Shown in pieces: positions 1 to 43,076 of a stretch of DNA of 43,076 nt (position 1 is its first letter; every line of letters begins with the position of its first letter). The stretch spans positions 1 through 43,076 of the forward strand of contig CAIKLM010000001.1 of the NCBI GenBank assembly GCA_903828235.1, given 5' to 3'. Origin of the DNA: an uncultured beta proteobacterium. Lineage in GTDB: Bacteria > Pseudomonadota > Gammaproteobacteria > Burkholderiales > Burkholderiaceae_C. A program made the translations under genes and the position numbers. The notes under the pieces are model-generated. The model was not told the DNA's origin, made no database searches, and saw only the letters and a program-made list of their open reading frames with translations.

Positions 1-35
1 AACGTGCTGTAGGCAACATCTGGAGATCTCGCCGC

Positions 36-350
36 ATGCAACGCCGCAAGTCGCGCCGCCACCAGCTCGCCGCCCGCGCCCGCTGGCGCAACGCCGAAGC
101 CCGCGCCCAGGCCGAGCGCGACGCCGGCATCCCCGACCGCGATCCGCCCTCCGACTACCGGCAGCCCTGCACCATCGACCTGCGCGGCGCCGGTGGCCCG
201 CTGCTCACGCTGGAGCCGCGGCTCGGTTACCTGGCCTGGCGCCAGCTCGACGAGTCTGGCCAGGTCACCGACTGCGCGGCGCTCAAGACGCTGCTGCACC
301 GCCTGGCCGACAGCCTGCCGCGCGAGCTGCGCGCCATGGCCCGGGCATGA
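36..350 (+). CDS. Conserved hypothetical phage protein, 104 aa
   Basis: The frame encodes 104 residues with a very basic, Arg-rich N-terminus (residues 1-30) and a C-terminal half that looks globular (a Leu/Trp-containing segment around residues 60-90). A GGAG element at 22-25 lies about ten bases before the ATG. I do not recognise a named domain. It sits between the cassette array at the right end of the window (if the genome is circular) and the start of the head genes, in the same direction as the late genes, and is separated from the next gene by a structured region with a terminator. The basic N-terminus may bind nucleic acid or simply be disordered. It is the first complete gene in the window; no function is inferred. 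Confidence 0.6.
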   Translation: MQRRKSRRHQLAARARWRNAEARAQAERDAGIPDRDPPSDYRQPCTIDLRGAGGPLLTLEPRLGYLAWRQLDESGQVTDCAALKTLLHRLADSLPRELRAMARA

Positions 351-1341: not shown

Positions 1342-1572
1342 ATGGCCACACTCACCGAGCTGCAGGCACGCCGCGCGCTCTACCTGGCCGCCGAGGCCAA
1401 GATCCTCAGCGGCGCGCAAGAGTACGAGATCGCCGACGGTGGCACCCGGCGCCGGCTGACGCGCGCCGACCTGGCCGAGATCCGCGTCGCCATCGAGCAG
1501 CTCGACCGCGACGTCGCGGCGCTGACGCCCGGCGCGCGCCGACTGTACCGCCTCGTGCCCGGCAGCCGCTGA
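1342..1572 (+). CDS. gpW / DUF6148-like head-tail connector protein
   Basis: A 76-residue protein with the gpW-type plan: an N-terminal helix (residues 3-25), a short beta hairpin with a YEIADGGTRRRLTR stretch, then a second helix containing DLAEIRVAIEQLDRDVAAL. Proteins of this type are small head-completion or connector factors acting at the portal vertex, where they stabilise packaged DNA and prepare the vertex for the tail. Its position directly before the portal matches lambda W-B order. Its stop overlaps the portal start in a TGATG, which suggests translational coupling. DUF6148 family membership is an alternative name for the same kind of protein. Confidence 0.75.
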   Translation: MATLTELQARRALYLAAEAKILSGAQEYEIADGGTRRRLTRADLAEIRVAIEQLDRDVAALTPGARRLYRLVPGSR

Positions 1573-3206
1573 TGCGCCGCACCCTCGTCGACCGCCTGGT
1601 GGAGCAGGTGGCGCCGCAGCATGCCCTGCAGCGCTACGCCGCCCGCGCGCGTATCGAGCTGCTGCACAACAGCCTGCAGGGCGCGTCGGCCATGGACGAC
1701 AGCGGCTACACCAGCACCGCCGGCGGCGACAGCTTCCTGACCCGCTGGTTCACCCAGCCGCGCAGCGCAGCCGCCGACACCCTGCGCCGCATCGGCGACC
1801 AGCGCGGCCAGGCGCGGGCCCTGGTGCGCAACCACCCGCTGGCAGCCAGCGCCATCAACACCAACGTCGCCCGCGCCATCGGCACCGGCCTGGTGTGGGT
1901 ACCCATGCCCCACCTGAAGACGCTGGGCTGGACGGTGCAGCAGGCCAAGGCCTGGGCCGAGGAGGTGAGCGCCGAGCACGCCATGTGGGCCGACAGCACC
2001 GCGTGCGACTACTACGGCGACCAGACCTTCTACGGCCTGCAGGACCTGGTCACCCGCGCGCGCCTGGAAAGCGGCGACTGCTTCAGCCTGCTGCCCGACG
2101 GCGCGCCCACGGCCCAGCAGCCCTACCGCCTGCGCGTGCAGGTGCTCGAGGCCGACCGCGTGGGCAACCGCAACAACGTCACCGACAACGGCGAAGTCTC
2201 CGGCGGCATCCGCCGCGGTGCCGACGGTCTGGTCGACGGTGTGTTCGTGTACCGCCAGCACCCGGGCTCGCTGTACTTCGGCAAGGGGAGCCCGCTGTAC
2301 GAGGGCGACTGGATCGTGCCCGTGGGCCCCAGCGGCCGGCGTCGCATCCTGCACCACTTCAAACGCCTGCGGCCCGAAATGCCGCGCGGGGTGAGCTACC
2401 TCGCGCCCGTGATGGGCCTGTTCAAGCTGCTGGGCGACTACACCGACGCCGAGGTCAAGGCCGCCGTCGTGAGCGCCTTCTTGACCATGGTGATCGAGAC
2501 GCCATCGGGCACCGGCGCGGCGCCGATCTTCGGCATGCAGGGCGCGCCAGATGCCGGCGGCGCCGGCGCTGGCCAGCAGGCCGGCGCGGCCGACGTCGAG
2601 CTCGGCCCGGGCGCCGTCATCGCGCTGGGCAAGGGCGAGAAGGCCAACGTGGTGAACCCCGGCCGCCCCAACCCGGCCTTCGGCCCCTTCGTGGAGGCGG
2701 TGCTCGACCAGCTGGGCGCCGGCACCTTCATCGGCAGCGAGCTGCTCCTGAAGAAGTTCAGCACCAGCTACACCGCCGCGCGCGCCGCCTGGCTGGATGC
2801 GTGGAAGCACCTGCTCGACGTGCGCACGCAGACCGCCGTGGACTTCTGCCAGCCCGTCACCGAGACCTGGCTGGCCGAGGCGGTGGCCAGCGGCCGCATC
2901 CGCGCGCCGGGGTTCTTCAGCGACCCGCGCATGCGCTGGGCCTACTGCCGCGGCGCCTGGCACGGCGACAGCCAGGGCAGCCTGAACCCGCGCGACGAGG
3001 TCACGGCCTTCCTGGACGCGGTGGATGGCGGCCTGACCACGCTGACGCGTGGCAGCTGGGAGCTCTTCGGGCAGGACTTCAACGGCGTCGTCGAGCAGCG
3101 AGCCGCCGACGAGGCCGCGCTGGCCGCGCGCGGCATCACCCTGCGCCCGCGCGCCGGCGCGCCCGCTGCGCAGCCCACCCGCGCGCCATCGCCCGGAGCC
3201 GCCTGA
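1572..3206 (+). CDS. Portal protein, lambda gpB family
   Basis: At 544 residues the protein is close to lambda gpB (533). Family features are an N-terminal region with RNHPLAASAINTNVARAIG (near residues 80-98), a central FLTMVIETPSG segment, the strongly conserved GYDTDAEVKAA-type helix (seen as LGDYTDAEVKAAV), and FSTSYTAARAAWLDAWK near residues 396-412. Twelve copies form the ring through which DNA is pumped by the terminase and to which the tail attaches. The C-terminus is Ala/Pro-rich and probably disordered. The start overlaps the gpW-like stop (TGATG) and its own stop overlaps the next start the same way. The assignment is secure at family level. Confidence 0.93.
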   Translation: MRRTLVDRLVEQVAPQHALQRYAARARIELLHNSLQGASAMDDSGYTSTAGGDSFLTRWFTQPRSAAADTLRRIGDQRGQARALVRNHPLAASAINTNVARAIGTGLVWVPMPHLKTLGWTVQQAKAWAEEVSAEHAMWADSTACDYYGDQTFYGLQDLVTRARLESGDCFSLLPDGAPTAQQPYRLRVQVLEADRVGNRNNVTDNGEVSGGIRRGADGLVDGVFVYRQHPGSLYFGKGSPLYEGDWIVPVGPSGRRRILHHFKRLRPEMPRGVSYLAPVMGLFKLLGDYTDAEVKAAVVSAFLTMVIETPSGTGAAPIFGMQGAPDAGGAGAGQQAGAADVELGPGAVIALGKGEKANVVNPGRPNPAFGPFVEAVLDQLGAGTFIGSELLLKKFSTSYTAARAAWLDAWKHLLDVRTQTAVDFCQPVTETWLAEAVASGRIRAPGFFSDPRMRWAYCRGAWHGDSQGSLNPRDEVTAFLDAVDGGLTTLTRGSWELFGQDFNGVVEQRAADEAALAARGITLRPRAGAPAAQPTRAPSPGAA

Positions 3207-25870: not shown

Positions 25871-26824
25871 TCAGGCCCGCTTGCGGATGGCCTGCAGGGC
25901 CTCGGCCAGGCGGGTGGTGCCGTGGTGCGCGTAGCGCTTGGTGGTGGCCGTGCTCTTGTGCCCCAGCACAGCGCCGACCGTGCCCAGGTCGACGCCGGCG
26001 TTGACCATGGCGGTGGCCGCGGAGTGGCGCAGGTCGTGCAGCCGCACGTGCTGCAGCCCGCAGGCCTCGCGCGCCAGGGGCCACCAGTAGTCGATGACGC
26101 TGCGCTCGGGCATGGGCACCCGGCTGGCCGTGCTGATGATGGGCAGCGCCGGCACGATGCGTGGGCTGCCGTTCTTGGTGTCGCGCAGCACGAAGGCGCC
26201 CGGCACGCGCTCGGCGCGCTGGGCCTCGCTGACGCGCATGCCCGTCCAGTACAGCACCCGGATGAGCGCGCGCACGCCGCGGTGCGGGCAGGCCCTGGCC
26301 AGCTTCACCATCTGCGCGCGCGTCACCGTCACGTCGCGGGCGTTGCGCACGGTGGGCGCCGTCACACGGGCGCCGGGGTCGGCGTCGCCCATGCCGTGGC
26401 GCTTCCAGGCCCAGCGGCAGGCCGCGCGCAGGTAGGCGATGCGGTTCTTGATGGTGGCCGGCGCCAGGGCGCCGTGCTGGTCTTGCGCGTACTCGGCGCA
26501 CACGGCGGCCAGGTCTTCGATGGGGCGGCCTTCCCACCAGTCGCGGGTGGCCTCGAGCTCGCGCTCCTGCGCGGCGCCGTGCTTCAGCTGGGGGACCCGC
26601 TCGCGCCGGTAATGAGCGACAGCTTGATCGATGTGCCACCGAGGCTTGGCGACTCCGGTCGCAAGCGCGTACAGGGCCGCGCTTTCCTTGCGGTCGAAGG
26701 CGTCGGCTTGGGCTTGCGTCCAGCCGGCGGGCAGAAAGCGGCGGCGTCGAAGACGCTGGCCACCGACGCGGCGGCTGAACTCGAAGACGAAGCGGCCGGT
26801 GGCCTTGTCGCGGTAGATCGACAT
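25871..26824 (-). CDS. int: Tyrosine recombinase integrase
   Basis: A 317-residue protein with an N-terminal arm-binding segment (residues 1-60), a core-binding SAM-like domain (about 62-145) and the catalytic domain. Catalytic residues are visible: Arg197 in WTGMRVSEA, Lys217 in RDTKNGS, His263 and Arg266 in LHDLRHS, His289 in LGHKS and nucleophile Tyr298 in KRYAHH. It integrates the phage into a tRNA-Cys gene through the adjacent attP. It is the last gene of the leftward early operon, with its terminator and an arm site just after the stop. The ATG at 26824 is chosen because it gives the usual N-terminus IYRDKATGRFVFEF. Confidence 0.95.
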   Translation of the reverse strand: MSIYRDKATGRFVFEFSRRVGGQRLRRRRFLPAGWTQAQADAFDRKESAALYALATGVAKPRWHIDQAVAHYRRERVPQLKHGAAQERELEATRDWWEGRPIEDLAAVCAEYAQDQHGALAPATIKNRIAYLRAACRWAWKRHGMGDADPGARVTAPTVRNARDVTVTRAQMVKLARACPHRGVRALIRVLYWTGMRVSEAQRAERVPGAFVLRDTKNGSPRIVPALPIISTASRVPMPERSVIDYWWPLAREACGLQHVRLHDLRHSAATAMVNAGVDLGTVGAVLGHKSTATTKRYAHHGTTRLAEALQAIRKRA

Positions 26825-26997: not shown

Positions 26998-27501
26998 TCA
27001 GCGCGGCGGGGCGGCCGCGGTGATGGCCAGGCCGCGCGCCATGGCGGCGGCCTGCGCATCCTGGGCCTGCGCGCGCAGGGAGTCGGCCAGCTGCTCGGAC
27101 CACGCGGCTGCGAGCTGCGCGGTGGCCACGTCGGTGGCGCGGGCCAACTCGCTCATCACACCGACGCCCCGGCAGGCCACCTGGTAGTCCAGCGGCTCGA
27201 AGCCGATGACGCCGGTGCGGCCGTACCGCTCGACCACGCGGGTGGCCATCTCCTGCTGCGCAGCCATCTCGGCCTGGTGGCGGCCCAGCAGCTCGGCCAC
27301 CTTCGACCAGGTGAACACCGACTCGACCAGGTGCCACAGCAGCGTCTCGTTCTGCTCGCCGGCGTGGATGCCGTCGAGGTTTTCGTGGTGCGCCAGGTCC
27401 AGGTCGAGCAGCTGGCCGCGGTCGAGCTTGGGGCGCAGCCAACGCGGCACCTGGGCTGTGGGCGTGCCCGGGCGCGGCCGGGTGGACGGGCGCGAGGCCA
27501 T
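26998..27501 (-). CDS. Conserved hypothetical helical protein, 167 aa
   Basis: A 167-residue protein with a basic, proline-rich N-terminus and a mostly helical body: DLDLAHHENLDGIHAGEQNE, LLWHLVESVFTWSKVAELLG and a C-terminal Ala/Gln-rich helix. Proteins with this HxxNLDxIxxG...LLW.....TWS pattern occur as hypotheticals in early regions of phages and plasmids of Burkholderiales. Its start overlaps the stop of the ASCH gene (ATGA), and AGGAG lies upstream. It is co-transcribed with the integration genes. I infer no specific function. Confidence 0.6.
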   Translation of the reverse strand: MASRPSTRPRPGTPTAQVPRWLRPKLDRGQLLDLDLAHHENLDGIHAGEQNETLLWHLVESVFTWSKVAELLGRHQAEMAAQQEMATRVVERYGRTGVIGFEPLDYQVACRGVGVMSELARATDVATAQLAAAWSEQLADSLRAQAQDAQAAAMARGLAITAAAPPR

Positions 27502-27938
27502 CAGAACAGCCGCTCCTGGCCAGCGGCCTCGGCCTCGGCAGCTGAGCTTCCCGCGCGGTGCAGGGCGTCGTGCAGCAAGGGGGACATGGGCACGTCGAAG
27601 AAGCCGAGCTGCCCGCGCAGCTTGACCAGGGGCATGGGCTTGGGGTCGTGCATGACGAAGCCGTAGGGCCCTGTGAACCAGCGCGTGGGGTGCTGGGTGA
27701 CGCAGGCGATGAGCTGCGCCCGGCCGACGATGCCGCCGAGCTCGTACTGAGCGGGCAGCAGCGGCTGCAGATCGGGGAAGGCGTGCAGCACCGACTGCAG
27801 GCCTTCGGCATCGAACTCCAGCCCGGCGTGGATGAGCGTGTCGCCGCGGTGGCTGGTGGGCCAGGTGCGGTTCTCCACGGGCTTGTGGCCGTGGACGATG
27901 AGCCAGGCCCAGGGCTGGCGGGCGCTCAGCGCCTTCAT
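27501..27938 (-). CDS. ASCH-domain protein
   Basis: A 145-residue protein with the ASCH signature: it begins MKALSARQPWAWLIVHG, and residues 17-24 (GHKPVENR) give the GxKxxExR motif that lines the domain's cleft. Later strands (GDTLIHAG, GGIVGRAQLIACV, YGFVMHDPKPMPLVKLRGQLGFF) complete the PUA-like barrel. ASCH proteins are thought to bind RNA or modified nucleotides, and some have nuclease or amidohydrolase activity. The phage substrate is unknown. It is translationally coupled on both sides (ATGA overlaps) in the leftward early operon. A role in handling host RNA or modified bases is speculation. Confidence 0.8.
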   Translation of the reverse strand: MKALSARQPWAWLIVHGHKPVENRTWPTSHRGDTLIHAGLEFDAEGLQSVLHAFPDLQPLLPAQYELGGIVGRAQLIACVTQHPTRWFTGPYGFVMHDPKPMPLVKLRGQLGFFDVPMSPLLHDALHRAGSSAAEAEAAGQERLF

Positions 27939-37040: not shown

Positions 37041-37576
37041 TGGCTGCTGACATGACGATCAGCGACTGGGCCCGGTCTGTCGGCATCAGCCGCCAGTCGG
37101 CGCACGAGGCCATCAAGCGCTGCGCGATCCCCGTCACCGACGGCCGCGTGGACGCGTTGGTGGCGACCACGCTGTACCGCGCGCGCACTCGCATCCGCAG
37201 CAACACGCGCCAGGCCGAAGCCGCCCCGGCCGCGGCGGCTGCGCCGGCCTCCAGCCCGCCAGCGTCACCGGGCGCGCCGACCGCCGCCGATCACGACCTG
37301 CGCCGCAAGGCGGCCGAGGCCGACATGGCCGAGCTCGAAGCCAGGCGCAAGGCCGGCGCGCTGATGGCCGTGGATCCGGCCGAGCGCGCCGCCTTCGAGG
37401 CCTTCCGCGAGCTGCGCGACGCCACCTTCAGCGCCATCCGCAGCGCGTCGCCCCAGGTGCTGGGCCTGACCGAGGTGCGCGAGGTGCAGCACCTGCTCGA
37501 AGACGCCCTGCGCGCGGCGTATGCCGACTTCGAGGCCCGCATGCAGCACCGCCTGGCGGAGGCCGCCAAGCCATGA
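37040..37576 (+). CDS. Terminase small subunit (Nu1-like)
   Basis: A 178-residue protein. Residues 5-40 form a winged-helix DNA-binding domain of gpNu1 type (TISDWARSVGISRQSAHEAI then CAIPVTDGRVD). An Ala/Pro linker (65-85) and a helical C-terminal half (MAELEARRKAGALMAVDPAE, then FEAFRELRDATFSAIRS) for contact with the large subunit follow. GTG at 37040 is preferred over the ATG at 37052 because AGGAGGG is six bases before it. It recognises the packaging site, probably in the repeat-rich region just upstream. The stop overlaps the large subunit start (ATGA). Confidence 0.88.
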   Translation: MAADMTISDWARSVGISRQSAHEAIKRCAIPVTDGRVDALVATTLYRARTRIRSNTRQAEAAPAAAAAPASSPPASPGAPTAADHDLRRKAAEADMAELEARRKAGALMAVDPAERAAFEAFRELRDATFSAIRSASPQVLGLTEVREVQHLLEDALRAAYADFEARMQHRLAEAAKP

Positions 37577-39657
37577 ACCTGGCCGACGGCTACCGCCTGG
37601 TCATGAACGCCGCCCTGCGCGGCGCGAAGCCCGACCCCGAGCTCCTCATCGACCAGTGGGCCGAGCAGCACATGGTCGTGCCGAAGGAAAGCGCCCGGCC
37701 GGGCAAGTACCGCATCGCCCACACCCCCATGGCGCGCCGCCTGTTGCAGGTGTTGTCGCCGCGGCACCCGGCGCGCCGCGTGGTCGCCAAGGTGGCCAGC
37801 CAGATGTTCAAGACCCAGGTCGCCCTGTGCTGGCTGGGCGCCAGCGCGCACCAGGCGCCCGCCAACATGCTGGTGCTAGAGCCCACCGACAGCCTGGCCA
37901 AGCGCCTGAGCGCGCGCATCACGAAGATGATCCGCGACGTGCCCGAGCTGCAGGCCGTCTTCGCGCGGCCACGCAGCCGCGACAGCCGCAACACCGTCTT
38001 CGCCAAGGACTTCGAGGGCGGCACCATGTACATCGCCACCGCCGGCAGCGCGGCCAACCTGGCCGAGATCCCCGCCCGGTACGTGTACGTCGACGAGATC
38101 GACCGCCTCGAGCGCGACGTCGACGGCGAAGGCGACCCGGTGATGCTGGCCGAGGCCCGCACCACCACCTTCGAGCACAACTCCAAGATCCTCTACACCA
38201 GCAGCCCGGGCGAGGCTGGCACCAGCAAGATCGACCAGCTGCATGAGATGGGCACGCGCGAGGTCTACCTGGTGCCGTGCCCGCACTGCGGCCACCACCA
38301 CGAGCTGGAGATCGGCAACTTCCGCTACGAGCGCGATCCCGACAGCGGCTTCATGCACCGAGCCTGGTTCGTGTGCCCCAGCTGCGGCGCCGAGATCGAC
38401 GAGCGCCACAAGGCCCGCATGCTGCGCGGCGCGGAAGAGGGCGGCACCGCCCACTGGCACGCCCGCTCCGACGGCGACGGCGAGACCATCAGCGTCCACT
38501 GCAGCGCCTTCTACGCCGCGGTGGGCAGCATCACCTGGCTGAAGCTGGCCCGCGAGCACGCCCGCGCGAAAGAGCAGCTCGAGCGCGGCAGCCCCGAAGC
38601 CATGCAGGTCTTCTACAACACCAGGCTGGCCCTGAGCTGGGCAAACACGCTGGAGCAGACCTCGGCGCAGGAGCTGATGGAGCGCACCCGCGTGCAGCCG
38701 CGCACGCTGCCCGACTGGGCCCTGGTGGTGACCATCGCCGTCGACACCCAGGCCAACCGTCTCGAGGCGCAGGCCGAGGCCTGGGGCCCCGGCCTTGAGC
38801 ACGCCGTCATCGACTACCAGGTCTTCATGGGCTCGCCGGCAGAGCCGCCGGACTCACCCACCAGCGTGTGGGCCAAGCTCGACCAGTACCGCGCCATCCC
38901 CTGGCTGCACTCCAGCGGCGTGCTGGTGATGGCCAGCGTGTATGGCATCGACACCGGCGGCTCCAACACCCAGGACGTCTACAACTACGCCAGCGCGCGC
39001 GTGCACGTGGGCTGCCTGGCCATCCACGGCAGCAGCCGGCCCAACCGCCCCATCATCGGCCAGACCCCCACCAAGGCCGACATCGACTGGAACGGCAAGC
39101 GCGTCGAAGGCGGCGTGCTCCTGTGGACGGTGGGCACCGACAGCGCGAAGGACCACCTCTTCAACCGCTTCAAGCTCACCAGCGGCTGGGGCGCCATGCA
39201 CTACAGCGCCGCGCTGGAGCTGCCCTGGTTCGAGGGCCTGCTGTGCGAACGCCCGCTGCTGCGGCGCAAGCCCGGCGGCGGCCTCAAGCGCGTGTGGGAG
39301 AAGTTCAGCCACGCCGACCGCAACGAGCCGCTCGACCTGGCCGTCTACAACCTGGCGCTCGCGCACCACCTGGGCCTGCACCGCTGGAGCGCGCTGGACT
39401 GGCAGCGCCTGCGCGACAAGCTCGTGCCCAAGCAGATCACGCCCGACCTGTTCATCAACGCCGACACCGCGCCCGCCCCGGCCCCGGCGCCCACCGAGCC
39501 GCCGCCGCCCGCCGCCACGCCCGGCGCAGCGCCGGCGCCGGTGGAGCAGCCCGCGCCGCAGCCCCCACCCGTCGCGCCGCCACCGCCGCCTGCCTTCCCC
39601 GCCCCAGCCCCGCAGCCCGAAGGCCGCCGGGTGCTCTCACGAGGACTCAACCGATGA
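37573..39657 (+). CDS. Terminase large subunit (gpA family)
   Basis: A 694-residue protein of the lambda gpA family. The N-terminal ATPase has a degenerate Walker A (VAKVASQMFKTQ, about residues 75-86) and Walker B YVYVDEID (about 174-181). The zinc-binding pair CPHCG (236-240) and CPSCG (about 271-275) is typical of gpA relatives. The C-terminal nuclease part includes VTIAVDTQANRLEAQ (Asp in the RNase H-like fold) and VYGIDTGGSNTQDVYNY. The last 60 residues are a Pro/Ala-rich tail not usual in gpA. It translocates DNA into the prohead and cuts it at cos. Coupled to both neighbours by ATGA overlaps. Confidence 0.93.
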   Translation: MNLADGYRLVMNAALRGAKPDPELLIDQWAEQHMVVPKESARPGKYRIAHTPMARRLLQVLSPRHPARRVVAKVASQMFKTQVALCWLGASAHQAPANMLVLEPTDSLAKRLSARITKMIRDVPELQAVFARPRSRDSRNTVFAKDFEGGTMYIATAGSAANLAEIPARYVYVDEIDRLERDVDGEGDPVMLAEARTTTFEHNSKILYTSSPGEAGTSKIDQLHEMGTREVYLVPCPHCGHHHELEIGNFRYERDPDSGFMHRAWFVCPSCGAEIDERHKARMLRGAEEGGTAHWHARSDGDGETISVHCSAFYAAVGSITWLKLAREHARAKEQLERGSPEAMQVFYNTRLALSWANTLEQTSAQELMERTRVQPRTLPDWALVVTIAVDTQANRLEAQAEAWGPGLEHAVIDYQVFMGSPAEPPDSPTSVWAKLDQYRAIPWLHSSGVLVMASVYGIDTGGSNTQDVYNYASARVHVGCLAIHGSSRPNRPIIGQTPTKADIDWNGKRVEGGVLLWTVGTDSAKDHLFNRFKLTSGWGAMHYSAALELPWFEGLLCERPLLRRKPGGGLKRVWEKFSHADRNEPLDLAVYNLALAHHLGLHRWSALDWQRLRDKLVPKQITPDLFINADTAPAPAPAPTEPPPPAATPGAAPAPVEQPAPQPPPVAPPPPPAFPAPAPQPEGRRVLSRGLNR

Positions 39658-41412: not shown

Positions 41413-41417
41413 GCGCC

Positions 41418-41708
41418 GTGGCTGGTCAGCTTGTTCCCGGGGTTGGGCGGCCGGCTTCGGAGCGCCGCGGCTTGCCACTGACGCCGTGGTTCTTTGGGCG
41501 GGAGGCTCCGCCGATGCGGGAAGGCCGCTACGAAGTGCGCTTCTGCGACGGCTGGCGAGGCGTGCCGTGCGAGTGGAGAAGTGGCGCGTGGTGGATCGGC
41601 GGCGGCGGGCTTTACAAGCCGATGCGGGTAGACCTAAAACGCTGGCCGCAGTTCACGTGGCGCGGCGTTAGTCAGCCGCCTAACGAAAAGGGTAACCGGC
41701 CTGCGTAG
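41418..41708 (+). CDS. Small Trp-rich protein ending inside an attC site
   Basis: A 96-residue protein from GTG at 41418 (a 64-residue version from ATG at 41514 is also possible). It contains LPLTPWFFGREAPPMREGRY, EVRFCDGWRGVPCEWRSGAW and WWIGGGGLYKPMRVDLKRW. The WF.G...P.R.G.YEVR start followed by a Trp-rich body is seen in small phage and plasmid hypotheticals. The reading frame ends inside the first attC-like site, with its last ten codons derived from it. A possible cassette boundary core, GTTGGGC at 41442-41448, lies near its 5' end. Function unknown. Confidence 0.55.
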   Translation: MAGQLVPGVGRPASERRGLPLTPWFFGREAPPMREGRYEVRFCDGWRGVPCEWRSGAWWIGGGGLYKPMRVDLKRWPQFTWRGVSQPPNEKGNRPA

Positions 41709-41749
41709 GCCGAAGGCCGTAGCGGGTCCGGTTGACCCGCCTGTTAGGC
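41678..41749 (-). mobile_element. Integron attC-like recombination site 1 (72 bp)
   Basis: Outer boxes GCCTAAC (41678-41684) and GTTAGGC (41743-41749) fit RYYYAAC and GTTRRRY and pair perfectly. Inner boxes GGTAACCGG (41691-41699) and CCGGTTGACC (41728-41737) pair with a single extra base (G41734), the hallmark extrahelical base of attC. Unpaired spacers of 6 and 5 nt lie between boxes. Read on the minus strand the extra base is in the L'' box and the tip contains GGCCTTCGGCC, as in known attC sites, so the site's polarity is probably minus. Confidence 0.85.
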
Positions 41750-41775
41750 CACATGCGGCCGAAGCGAGAAAGACT

Positions 41776-42060
41776 ATGCAAGCAACTGACGAGATGGTGA
41801 ATAGGTTCCTGACGTGGCATGTGCCGGCTGACGTGTACCCGGACGGGACGCCCGGACAACCCGGCCGCACTGGCACAAACCTGCTGACAGCATCGCAGGC
41901 GCGATACATGCTCGACCATGTGTTGGCGGGCGAACTGACGACGCTGCCGCCAGGGTTTGAAGACGAGGCGTACAAGGCCGCGCACGAAGAGTCAAACCGT
42001 GACTGGAAAGACTTTGTGCGCGGCGCGAAGTGGGCTGTCAAGCGGCTGCTGAAAGCGTGA
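41776..42060 (+). CDS. Cassette-borne small protein, 94 aa
   Basis: A 94-residue protein lying wholly between the two attC-like sites. It begins with a helix (MQATDEMVNRFLTWHVPADV), has GTNLLTASQARYMLDHVLAG in the middle and a basic C-terminus (FVRGAKWAVKRLLKA). Proteins starting TDEMVNRFL.W with GTNL.TA.QA are common phage hypotheticals. The DNA is clearly less GC-rich than the phage backbone. The Shine-Dalgarno is weak. It starts 27 bases after the attC site, is followed one base later by another small frame, and has no assigned role. Confidence 0.7.
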   Translation: MQATDEMVNRFLTWHVPADVYPDGTPGQPGRTGTNLLTASQARYMLDHVLAGELTTLPPGFEDEAYKAAHEESNRDWKDFVRGAKWAVKRLLKA

Positions 42061-42061
42061 G

Positions 42062-42187
42062 ATGTACGCGCGCCACAACCCCAACGTCTGCTTTATATGG
42101 CCCGCGCTGGCAATGGGCGTGGACGTTGACGGCCGCTACTTCCTGGAAGCTGCGTGGCTTTGCTGGGCGGTGGGTGTTGGGGCCTAA
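42062..42187 (+). CDS. Cassette-borne short hydrophobic protein, 41 aa
   Basis: A 41-codon frame starting one base after the preceding stop; its own TAA is the TAA of the GCCTAAC box of attC site 2, the way many integron cassette genes end. The product is rich in hydrophobic and aromatic residues (NVCFIWPALAMGVDVDGRYF then LEAAWLCWAVGVGA), with a possible membrane-seeking C-terminal helix. It has no Shine-Dalgarno of its own but can be translationally coupled. It could be a partner of the 94-residue protein. Evidence is positional. Confidence 0.5.
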   Translation: MYARHNPNVCFIWPALAMGVDVDGRYFLEAAWLCWAVGVGA

Positions 42188-42240
42188 CGATCGAATTCAG
42201 CCGCCCGCCGCGGCGGGTCGGCTGGAATGAGGGGTTGTGC
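42182..42240 (-). mobile_element. Integron attC-like recombination site 2 (59 bp)
   Basis: Outer boxes GCCTAAC (42182-42188) and GTTGTGC (42234-42240) bracket inner boxes TTCAGCCG (42196-42203) and CGGCTGGAA (42219-42227), which pair with one extra base. A palindromic CCCGCCGCGGCGGG tip lies between and unpaired spacers of 7 and 6 nt separate the boxes. On the minus strand it reads like a standard attC with the extra base in L''. The mismatch between outer boxes is expected where two different cassettes meet. Confidence 0.85.
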
Positions 42241-42278
42241 TTCACCCATCCGAAGCGCGAAGACAGTGGAGTGCCGAC

Positions 42279-43067
42279 ATGGCCGAGACGACAGGGATTG
42301 CCTGGACCGACAGCACCTTTAACCCGTGGATCGGCTGCACGAAGGTGAGCCCAGGCTGCGACAACTGCTATGCCTCCGTGAGCACGCCGGCCCGGAGCAT
42401 GCGCATCGTGTGGGGTGCCGGCCAGCCGCGCCACCGCACCAGCGCTCAGAACTGGAAAACGCCGGAGTTCTGGAACGGCCAGCACGAGGCGTTCAAGGCC
42501 ACGCACGGCCGGCGCCGCCGCGTGTTCTGCGCGAGCCTGGCGGACGTGTTCGACAACGAGGTGCCGAACGAGTGGCGCGCGGACTTGTTCGCGCTGATCG
42601 ACCGCACGCCACACCTGGACTGGCTGCTGCTGACGAAGCGGGTGGGCAACGTGCTGCCGATGCTGCTGGAGATTGGCCGCGAGCGGCTGCCCGTGAACGT
42701 GTGGCAGGGCATCAGCGCGGTGAACCAGGAGGAAGCGCGGCGCGACCTGCCGAAGCTGGCGCGACTGGATGCCACTGTGCGGTGGGTGAGCTACGAACCG
42801 GCGCTTGGCGAGCTGGACCTGTTTGACAGCGTGATGACAAAGGACGGCCCGCGCCAGTTGATCGAGGGCCTGGACTGGGTGATTGCGGGCGGCGAGAGCG
42901 GCCCGAAGGCGCGGCCGATCCGGCGCGAGTGGGTGGACCTGCTGCGCGAGCAGTGCGACCGCTGCGGCGTGGCCTTCTTCTTCAAGCAGTGGGGCGGCAT
43001 CAACGCGACCGCTGGAGGCTGCGAACTCGACGGCGCCGAGGTCAAGGCCTGGCCGTGCACCGCGTGA
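42279..43067 (+). CDS. DUF5131 family protein (phage Gp37/Gp68)
   Basis: A 262-residue protein that opens with the family signature AETTGIAWTDSTFNPWIGCT and a cysteine cluster Cys20, Cys27, Cys30 (GCTKVSPGCDNCYA), resembling an iron-sulfur-binding motif of radical-SAM type. Further family blocks are RRVFCASLADVFDNEVP, LDWLLLTKRVGNV, WQGISAVNQEEA and the C-terminal IAGGESGPKARP with VAFFFKQWGG. The enzymatic reaction is not established. The ATG at 42279 has GGAG upstream; an earlier GTG (42237) overlaps the attC site. The gene lies alone between attC-like site 2 and the half-site at the end of the window, so it forms a cassette. Confidence 0.88.
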   Translation: MAETTGIAWTDSTFNPWIGCTKVSPGCDNCYASVSTPARSMRIVWGAGQPRHRTSAQNWKTPEFWNGQHEAFKATHGRRRRVFCASLADVFDNEVPNEWRADLFALIDRTPHLDWLLLTKRVGNVLPMLLEIGRERLPVNVWQGISAVNQEEARRDLPKLARLDATVRWVSYEPALGELDLFDSVMTKDGPRQLIEGLDWVIAGGESGPKARPIRREWVDLLREQCDRCGVAFFFKQWGGINATAGGCELDGAEVKAWPCTA

Positions 43068-43068
43068 A

Positions 43069-43075
43069 GCACAAC
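43069..43075. mobile_element. Half of a third attC-like site (outer box)
   Basis: GCACAAC two bases after the DUF5131 stop is the exact reverse complement of GTTGTGC at 42234-42240. In integron cassettes the two outer boxes contributed by one cassette are complementary, as here. The rest of the site would lie beyond the window. Confidence 0.6.
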
Positions 43076-43076
43076 G

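What the first reader, a model, noticed from the sequence alone, without database searches (positions are those of the whole stretch)
41678..43076. Integron-type gene cassette array inside a phage genome, without an integron integrase
Seen: two complete attC-like sites (41678-41749, 72 bp; 42182-42240, 59 bp) and a half-site at 43069-43075. Each has RYYYAAC/GTTRRRY-type outer boxes, complementary inner boxes with one extra base, and unpaired spacers. The boxes that belong to one cassette are complementary (TTAGGC with GCCTAAC for the middle cassette, TTGTGC with GCACAAC for the DUF5131 cassette), a relation that chance would not produce three times. Known: attC sites are recombined by IntI as folded single strands. 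Inferred: the phage has captured, or exchanges, integron cassettes, a way to move cassettes between bacteria and to vary an accessory locus between terminase and portal genes.
Basis: partly seen in the sequence, partly recalled or inferred. Interest (0 to 1): 0.93.

Follow-up and report, generated by a model that had tools for sequence, protein, structure and literature searches.

The report
Phage cassettes with back-to-front integron sites
This phage carries a short array of integron gene cassettes whose recombination sites point backwards relative to their genes; the same layout recurs in dozens of contigs classed as viral, and related phages encode their own integron integrase, so phages likely run a cassette-swapping system of their own.

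Summary
The finding is real. Both sites are attC sites: a covariance model built from 11 chromosomal attCs of the host genus scores them at E 7.6e-10 and 4.9e-7, both on the strand opposite to the genes. The unpaired base that selects the recombining strand sits on the other arm, so each attC is inverted relative to its gene. In IMG/VR loci I count 49 inverted to 3 normal sites, and 34 to 3 new unique sites in held-back loci; chromosomal arrays give 8 to 74. About two in five long viral sites hold a Shine-Dalgarno plus ATG inside the attC, so the site lies at the gene's 5' end. Homology breakpoints that fall in viral attC sites lie nearer the predicted crossover in 13 of 13 cases. A prophage and 24 viral loci encode related integron integrases (17 of the 24 with detected arrays); those in the tree split from chromosomal ones. 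The window's phage has none. Best reading: phages keep a cassette pool of reversed polarity, probably moved by phage or host IntI in trans. No activity was tested.

The parts
41678..41749 (-). attC site 1 (72 bp). Recombining strand predicted to be the plus (gene) strand; predicted crossover 41683|41684
   Evidence: E 4.9e-7 on minus strand
42182..42240 (-). attC site 2 (59 bp); predicted crossover 42187|42188
   Evidence: E 7.6e-10 on minus strand
43069..43075 (+). GCACAAC box of a third site, cut by the contig end; pairs with TTGTGC 42235-42240
41441..41447 (+). GTTGGGC box at the left edge of the array; pairs 5 of 6 with 41678-41683; what lies to its left looks like a truncated inner arm (by eye)
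   Evidence: the same GTTGGGCGGCCGGC motif in relative L023
41418..41708 (+). ORF of the first, partial cassette (96 aa from GTG; in-frame ATG at 41514)
   Evidence: no Pfam or PHROG match
41684..42187 (+). predicted mobile unit A: attC stem 1 plus two ORFs
   Evidence: inferred from site polarity and breakpoints in other phages
41776..42060 (+). 94-aa ORF of unit A, with relatives in metagenomes
   Evidence: 122 proteins at E <= 0.001; no Pfam or PHROG match
42062..42187 (+). 41-aa ORF of unit A; its TAA stop lies inside the GCCTAAC box
42188..43074 (+). predicted mobile unit B: attC stem 2 plus DUF5131 gene
   Evidence: inferred from site polarity
42279..43067 (+). DUF5131 gene (PF07505 / phrog_2045)
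41413..43076 (+). left part of the accessory block that is absent from the empty relative L148; the block continues at 1-350
1..350 (+). right part of the same block, with a 104-aa ORF (36-350)
37573..39657 (+). terminase large subunit, left flank of the locus
1572..3206 (+). portal protein, right flank of the locus
25871..26812 (-). ordinary phage integrase (PF00589, phrog_1), not an IntI

Best explanation
The window's phage carries an array of integron gene cassettes, without an integron integrase of its own, whose attC sites are inverted relative to the genes, and these cassettes were likely captured, and are likely exchanged, by an integron integrase acting in trans. Shown: in each unit the attC polarity is opposite to the gene, in this window and in dozens of viral contigs. 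Shown: IntI genes that group apart from the chromosomal IntIs of the host genus sit in a prophage and in viral contigs beside arrays of the same kind; there intI and the attC array stand in the usual integron order and polarity, but the cassette genes are reversed. Inferred: the folded gene strand recombines, with the crossover in the RYYYAA|C box at or just after the stop codon, so the mobile unit is an attC stem plus the gene that follows it. Inferred: reversed polarity lets new cassettes enter next to intI and still be read in the direction of the phage operon, which also contains intI. In many long sites the attC carries a ribosome-binding motif and start codon, so the hairpin would double as translation start. 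The window's array would be an offshoot without IntI, stored in the late operon between terminase and portal.
For: attC identity and inverted polarity in the window. Cassette variation and empty site: relatives L022 and L023 match the window up to about 40.4 kb and again from 356, with unrelated sequence and their own attCs between; L148 joins window 41416 to 348 with 15 bp between; G045 has no block. Polarity: extra base in the L'' arm on the array strand in 52 of 52 sites detected beside IntI in 36 loci; gene-relative class there 32 normal, 4 inverted, 16 none; same-pattern chromosomal control, 45 loci, 74 normal, 8 inverted, 5 both, 53 none; viral, 80 loci, 49 inverted, 3 normal, 2 both, 46 none, or 41, 3, 2, 41 by unique site, and held-back 40 loci 34, 3, 2, 27 by new unique site; Fisher p 2e-24 for 49:3 against 8:74 (sites not all independent). 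SD+ATG inside long sites on the gene-bearing strand: 19 of 46 unique viral sites, 0 of 46 on the other strand; beside chromosomal IntI 2 of 38, one of these being the prophage L189 itself; held-back 14 of 32 and 0 of 32. Breakpoints nearer the predicted crossover 13 of 13. Prophage with IntI, three attCs and a separate integrase in G057:C246. 24 viral loci with related IntI; in 17 of them 39 attC-like sites, all in the usual polarity to IntI, genes 16 inverted, 0 normal, 1 both, 22 none. IntI tree: 16 phage against 42 chromosomal, one branch, support 98/83. TerL in 7 of the 24 IntI-bearing records, one of these weak at 18.6 bits. The prophage IntI matches solved IntI 2A3V, E 6e-85. Strand choice by the extrahelical base, and shift of the crossover to R'' on inversion, is experimental in PMC2727003 (passages seen).
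Against: No IntI over the cut-off in the window's genome or in 43 viral records, 41 of them with detected sites and many of them fragments, so a trans supply is assumed for those arrays. The left edge of the window's block is not a clean attC or GTT site, and both contig ends fall in the block, so the entry reaction is not resolved. The window's two sites are short and do not show the start codon inside the site. Many sites (41 of 87 unique in the main set) could not be classed because no called gene stop lay near. Genes were called by a simple script of mine. The relaxed scan gave 3 sites of score 10 or more in 3.35 Mb of shuffled phage sequence, so a few viral sites may be false. If any start codon is allowed, open frames starting inside long sites are common on both strands (viral 26 and 16 of 46, beside IntI 11 and 14 of 38); only the ATG with ribosome-binding motif separates the groups. 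Many viral sites and IntI loci come from near-identical contigs; the 13 breakpoints include repeats of one event (L168/L171; L397/L399/L405). Phage TJE1 has sites of the ordinary side, so inversion is not universal in phages. In the closest IntI-bearing relative (L406) no single frame stays open over the whole IntI homology, so that copy may be broken.
Confidence: 0.75

Rival explanations
1. Ordinary chromosomal cassettes were captured by the phage at a secondary site through the host's own IntI, and the inverted polarity only reflects selection for cassettes whose genes read with the phage operon.
For: 65 of 81 genomes of the genus carry an IntI match at E <= 1e-60, and the viral attC arms closely resemble chromosomal attC arms of the genus. 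Gene-inverted cassettes exist in chromosomal arrays as a minority.
Against: Inverted units dominate in viral contigs with different surroundings; if site orientation varied, ordinary cassettes should dominate in about half of the phages. The ATG with ribosome-binding motif inside the site is rare beside chromosomal IntI. The phage IntIs group apart from host IntIs.
Confidence: 0.15
2. The hairpins are remnants: the block moved into this phage by homologous recombination between phages, and the sites are no longer used.
For: No IntI in the genome; incomplete boxes at both edges; mosaic exchange is common in phages (general knowledge).
Against: Breakpoints in other phages that fall in attC sites lie nearer the crossover box, 13 of 13. 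Boxes within the two complete units are perfectly complementary although they differ between units (TTAGGC, TTGTGC), as expected of working sites.
Confidence: 0.08
3. The sites are phage transcription terminators or RNA hairpins that resemble attC by chance.
For: Phage operons contain hairpins between genes (general knowledge).
Against: Covariance-model E-values and a loss of 34 and 25 bits on the other strand, complementary boxes across each gene, no hit in five shuffles of the window, no Rfam match.
Confidence: 0.02

Closest known systems
CALINs in phage genomes (Qi et al. 2023, PMC9892861; abstract and parts 2-3 of 7 of the text seen)
   Same: Two or more attC sites without an integron integrase, in a phage; five of six tested phage sites were recombined by IntI1 in that paper.
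   Different: In TJE1, one of that paper's phages, the three sites I detect carry the extra base on the ordinary L'' side; the window's are inverted relative to the genes. No inversion, start codon inside attC or phage IntI clade was mentioned in the parts read.
Sedentary chromosomal integrons of the host genus (IntI match in 65 of 81 genomes)
   Same: Same R and L boxes and similar arm sequences.
   Different: There the gene mostly precedes attC with its polarity: 74 normal to 8 inverted in the same-pattern control.
Atypical integrons of Treponema (PMC3607928, passages and section 9 read)
   Same: intI and cassette genes are transcribed in one direction.
   Different: In Treponema intI itself is turned towards attI; in the phage integrons found here intI points away from the array as usual and the genes are turned within their cassettes.
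attC mutants with inverted extrahelical bases (Bouvier et al. 2009, PMC2727003; passages seen)
   Same: Moving the extra bases to the other arm switches the strand used and, with the central spacer also inverted, shifts the crossover to R''.
   Different: Those were laboratory constructs; here the inverted arrangement, relative to the gene, occurs naturally.

Membership tests
integron gene cassette with attC | R''/R' boxes of type RYYYAAC and GTTRRRY | tested here: met
   site 2 has one mismatch (GTTGTGC)
integron gene cassette with attC | L''/L' arms that pair with one extrahelical base; fit to an attC covariance model | tested here: met
   E 7.6e-10 and 4.9e-7, minus strand
integron gene cassette with attC | boxes at the two ends of one cassette are complementary | tested here: met
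   two units 6 of 6, a third 5 of 6
integron gene cassette with attC | attC polarity places the gene upstream on the attC top strand | tested here: not met
   (both sites minus strand, genes plus strand)
integron gene cassette with attC | cassette content varies between relatives at the same locus | tested here: met
integron gene cassette with attC | recombined by an integron integrase | not testable with these tools
   only indirect: breakpoints near the crossover box in other phages
CALIN (attC cluster lacking integron integrase) | at least two attC sites and no integron integrase nearby | tested here: met
complete integron | intI gene with attI next to the array | tested here: not met
   no IntI over cut-off in the window's genome; intI beside the array is met instead in the prophage of G057, where attI itself was not tested
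Treponema-type atypical integron | intI transcribed towards attI | tested here: not met
   no intI in the window; in the related prophage and viral loci intI points away from the array

The most novel reading that the evidence does not exclude
Phages possess their own integron system: a phage clade of IntI drives a phage cassette pool in which genes are turned round relative to their attC, so that cassettes enter beside intI and are still read by the phage operon, and the attC hairpin doubles as ribosome-binding site and start codon. The reversed polarity works as a lock that keeps phage cassettes and host cassettes in separate pools, since a phage cassette landing in a host integron would lie antisense to its promoter.
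Probability: 0.55. Interest if true: 0.93.

Novelty: new variant of a known kind. Interest (0 to 1): 0.86.

Why it matters
Integron work holds that the extrahelical base fixes cassette orientation so that the host promoter reads the gene (PMC2727003). A natural, widespread class with the opposite polarity, tied to phages and to a phage clade of IntI, would show that phages adapted the integron to their own operons. It would give phages a site-specific way to swap accessory genes, could explain why some phage assemblies break at attC sites, and predicts cassette pools kept apart by orientation. It makes the rule of Bouvier et al. (extrahelical base decides strand and crossover) testable on natural inverted sites.

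Tried and rejected
Host IntI in the window's genome: five weak TIGR02249 hits, the best at 83 bits against a cut-off of 265; judged by eye it is a XerD-type gene beside a Bug-type receptor gene. A simple GTT (attG-like) insertion at 41441: the empty relative L148 joins at 41413-41416 instead, so the left edge looks like a truncated site and the entry reaction stays open. DUF5131 homologues in the genus: 17 of 80 other genomes have a match, and none of the loci fetched for them has a detected attC, so the cargo did not lead to host integrons. The 94-aa protein had no relative in the 80 other genus genomes. A long viral attC searched in named phages gave nothing, and in plasmids two short partial matches. 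Contig-end overlap: the last 117 bases have no second copy in the genome except a 24-base match; the two ends share only AACG and were not joined. Papers: the listings show no title or abstract start that reports gene-inverted phage cassettes; that is a statement about those eight searches of an open-licence library only. The attG work of Loot et al. is recalled and was not read.

In some searches the prophage locus L189 is among the loci beside IntI; it supplies one of the four inverted sites and one of the two ATG-with-motif sites. One search includes some loci from contigs already used. The covariance model was built from sites oriented by their extra base, so its polarity rests and is not an independent definition. 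The tree left out IntI pieces that were short or identical (58 rows kept), L406 among them. One search left out three of the 39 loci with sites (L247, L266, L279). Host flanks of the prophage were judged by eye, not by a family search.

Full report
The window is a complete contig, C1 of a 182-contig bacterial draft genome. It holds a tailed-phage genome: terminase, portal, tape measure and tail genes and an ordinary tyrosine integrase. The closest named relatives lie in Rubrivivax metagenome assemblies, so the host is probably Rubrivivax-like (inference).

Observation. My structural scan (R boxes with at most one mismatch each, inner arms with exactly one bulged base) finds two sites in 43 kb and none in five dinucleotide shuffles of the window. 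With filters off it scores 42182-42240 at 48.5 bits (E 7.6e-10) and 41678-41749 at 37.1 bits (E 4.9e-7). Thirteen other loci, twelve of them terminase relatives without detected sites, gave one hit, in phage TJE1, a phage with published attCs.

Polarity. Both hits are on the minus strand while the genes are on the plus strand; on the plus strand the same places score 14.5 and 12.0 bits. The extra unpaired base lies in the 3' arm on the gene strand. In 52 of 52 sites detected beside IntI, in 36 loci of the genus, it lies in the 5' arm on the array strand. Published experiments show that this base decides which strand recombines, and that inverting it together with the central spacer moves the crossover to the other box (PMC2727003, passages).

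Relatives. L039 carries an ASCH-domain cassette and two sites after its terminase genes. L148, about 90% identical downstream and 83% upstream, lacks the whole block, from 41416 to 348 through the contig ends, with 15 bases between. In G045, 71% identical in the terminase protein, the spot holds no block. The window ends in an attC box, L039 ends in one, and L173 appears to begin in one (E 0.015).

How general is it? In these 80 loci the scan finds 100 sites in 39 loci. Classed by the gene whose stop codon abuts a box, 49 are inverted, 3 normal, 2 both and 46 unclassed; by unique site 41, 3, 2 and 41. At least one inverted site is in 23 of these 39 loci. The 40 unlisted loci, analysed only afterwards, hold sites in 18 and give 34 inverted, 3 normal, 2 both and 27 unclassed new unique sites; 13 loci have an inverted one. 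The same classifier on 36 loci beside IntI gives 32 normal, 4 inverted, 16 unclassed, and on 45 chromosomal loci found with, or chosen from, the same pattern 74 normal, 8 inverted, 5 both, 53 unclassed. In shuffled phage sequence the relaxed scan gave 3 sites of score 10 or more in 3.35 Mb; the 80 viral loci hold 0.65 Mb.

attC at the 5' end of the gene. Of the long unique viral sites (75-180 bp), 19 of 46 hold a Shine-Dalgarno-like motif and ATG inside the site on the strand opposite to the attC polarity, in a frame that runs on through the site for at least 40 codons; 0 of 46 do so on the other strand, and 2 of 38 long sites beside IntI do, one of them in the prophage L189. The held-back loci give 14 of 32 and 0 of 32. 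Without the motif, open frames from any ATG or GTG inside long sites are common on both strands (viral 26 and 16 of 46; beside IntI 11 and 14 of 38). Where it occurs, the attC arm encodes the first residues of the protein, and in 12 of the 20 listed cases (19 long sites and one short) the stop codon is the TAA of a YCTAACG box. The mobile unit is therefore best read as attC stem plus the gene that follows it.

Exchange at the predicted point. Comparing the viral loci with one another, 13 ends of high-identity blocks fall in or beside an attC. All 13 lie nearer the box predicted by the inverted polarity and none nearer the other; 11 are within 5 bases, one is 10 and one is 28 bases away. Several come from related pairs and are not independent.

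Who recombines? The window's genome, and 43 viral records of which 41 have detected sites, show no IntI over the cut-off; many of the records are fragments. But one genus genome, G057, carries a prophage on C246 with portal, terminase and tail genes and a separate integrase, between genes that look chromosomal by eye. [quoted passage not shown] This IntI matches the solved IntI 2A3V (E 6e-85) and keeps the active-site motifs as judged by eye on the printed alignment. IMG/VR holds 24 loci with related IntIs. In 17 of them the scan finds 39 attC-like sites, all in the usual polarity to intI, with genes 16 inverted, 0 normal, 1 both, 22 unclassed. Seven of those 24 records also match a large terminase family, one of them only at 18.6 bits. 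One, IMGVR_UViG_3300002461_000823, is a relative of the window's phage (terminase region 68% identical) and has a DUF5131 gene and two attCs upstream of its intI, although no single frame stays open over that intI. In a tree, the 16 phage IntIs fall on one side of a branch from 42 chromosomal IntIs (support 98/83).

Reading. In an ordinary integron, cassettes enter beside intI and are read away from it by the integron promoter. In these phages cassettes appear to enter at the same place, but the phage operon would read through the cassettes towards intI, so only reversed genes are in sense. That accounts for the polarity, the start codon inside the site and the IntI clade. It is an inference from anatomy; no recombination or expression was measured. 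The window's array would then be a member of this pool without its own integrase, stored in the late operon. How it entered is open, because its left edge looks like a truncated site and its right edge is cut by the contig end.

Comparison with what is known. attC clusters without integrase in phages were reported by Qi et al. 2023 (PMC9892861, parts seen). Treponema integrons also have intI and genes in one direction, but there intI is turned (PMC3607928). I saw no report of gene-inverted cassettes in phages in the listings of eight searches of an open-licence library.

Noticed in passing
L189, L376, L377 (G057 contig C246): A prophage carries an integron integrase and cassettes inside its early operon, besides its own phage integrase.
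   Followed up: partly
L238 (IMGVR_UViG_3300049483_000041): One viral contig has attC arrays towards both ends of the fetched stretch on opposite strands; the sites that could be classed are inverted relative to their genes at both ends.
   Followed up: no
L168, L171, L173: A second phage lineage keeps one attC and the sequence after it, while the gene before the site differs; in L171 and L173 a terminase-like gene (by eye) follows.
   Followed up: partly
G046 contigs C1 and C2: Parts of one series of attC motifs with the same spacing appear at both ends of C1 and at the end of C2, as repeated arrays or an assembly effect.
   Followed up: no
window 27501-27938, minus strand: A gene that looks like an ASCH-domain gene by eye sits in the early region of this phage; an ASCH gene is a cassette cargo in L039, so similar gene types may occur in and outside cassettes.
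   Followed up: no
window 36-350: A 104-aa ORF with no Pfam or PHROG match belongs to the block that the empty relative lacks.
   Followed up: no
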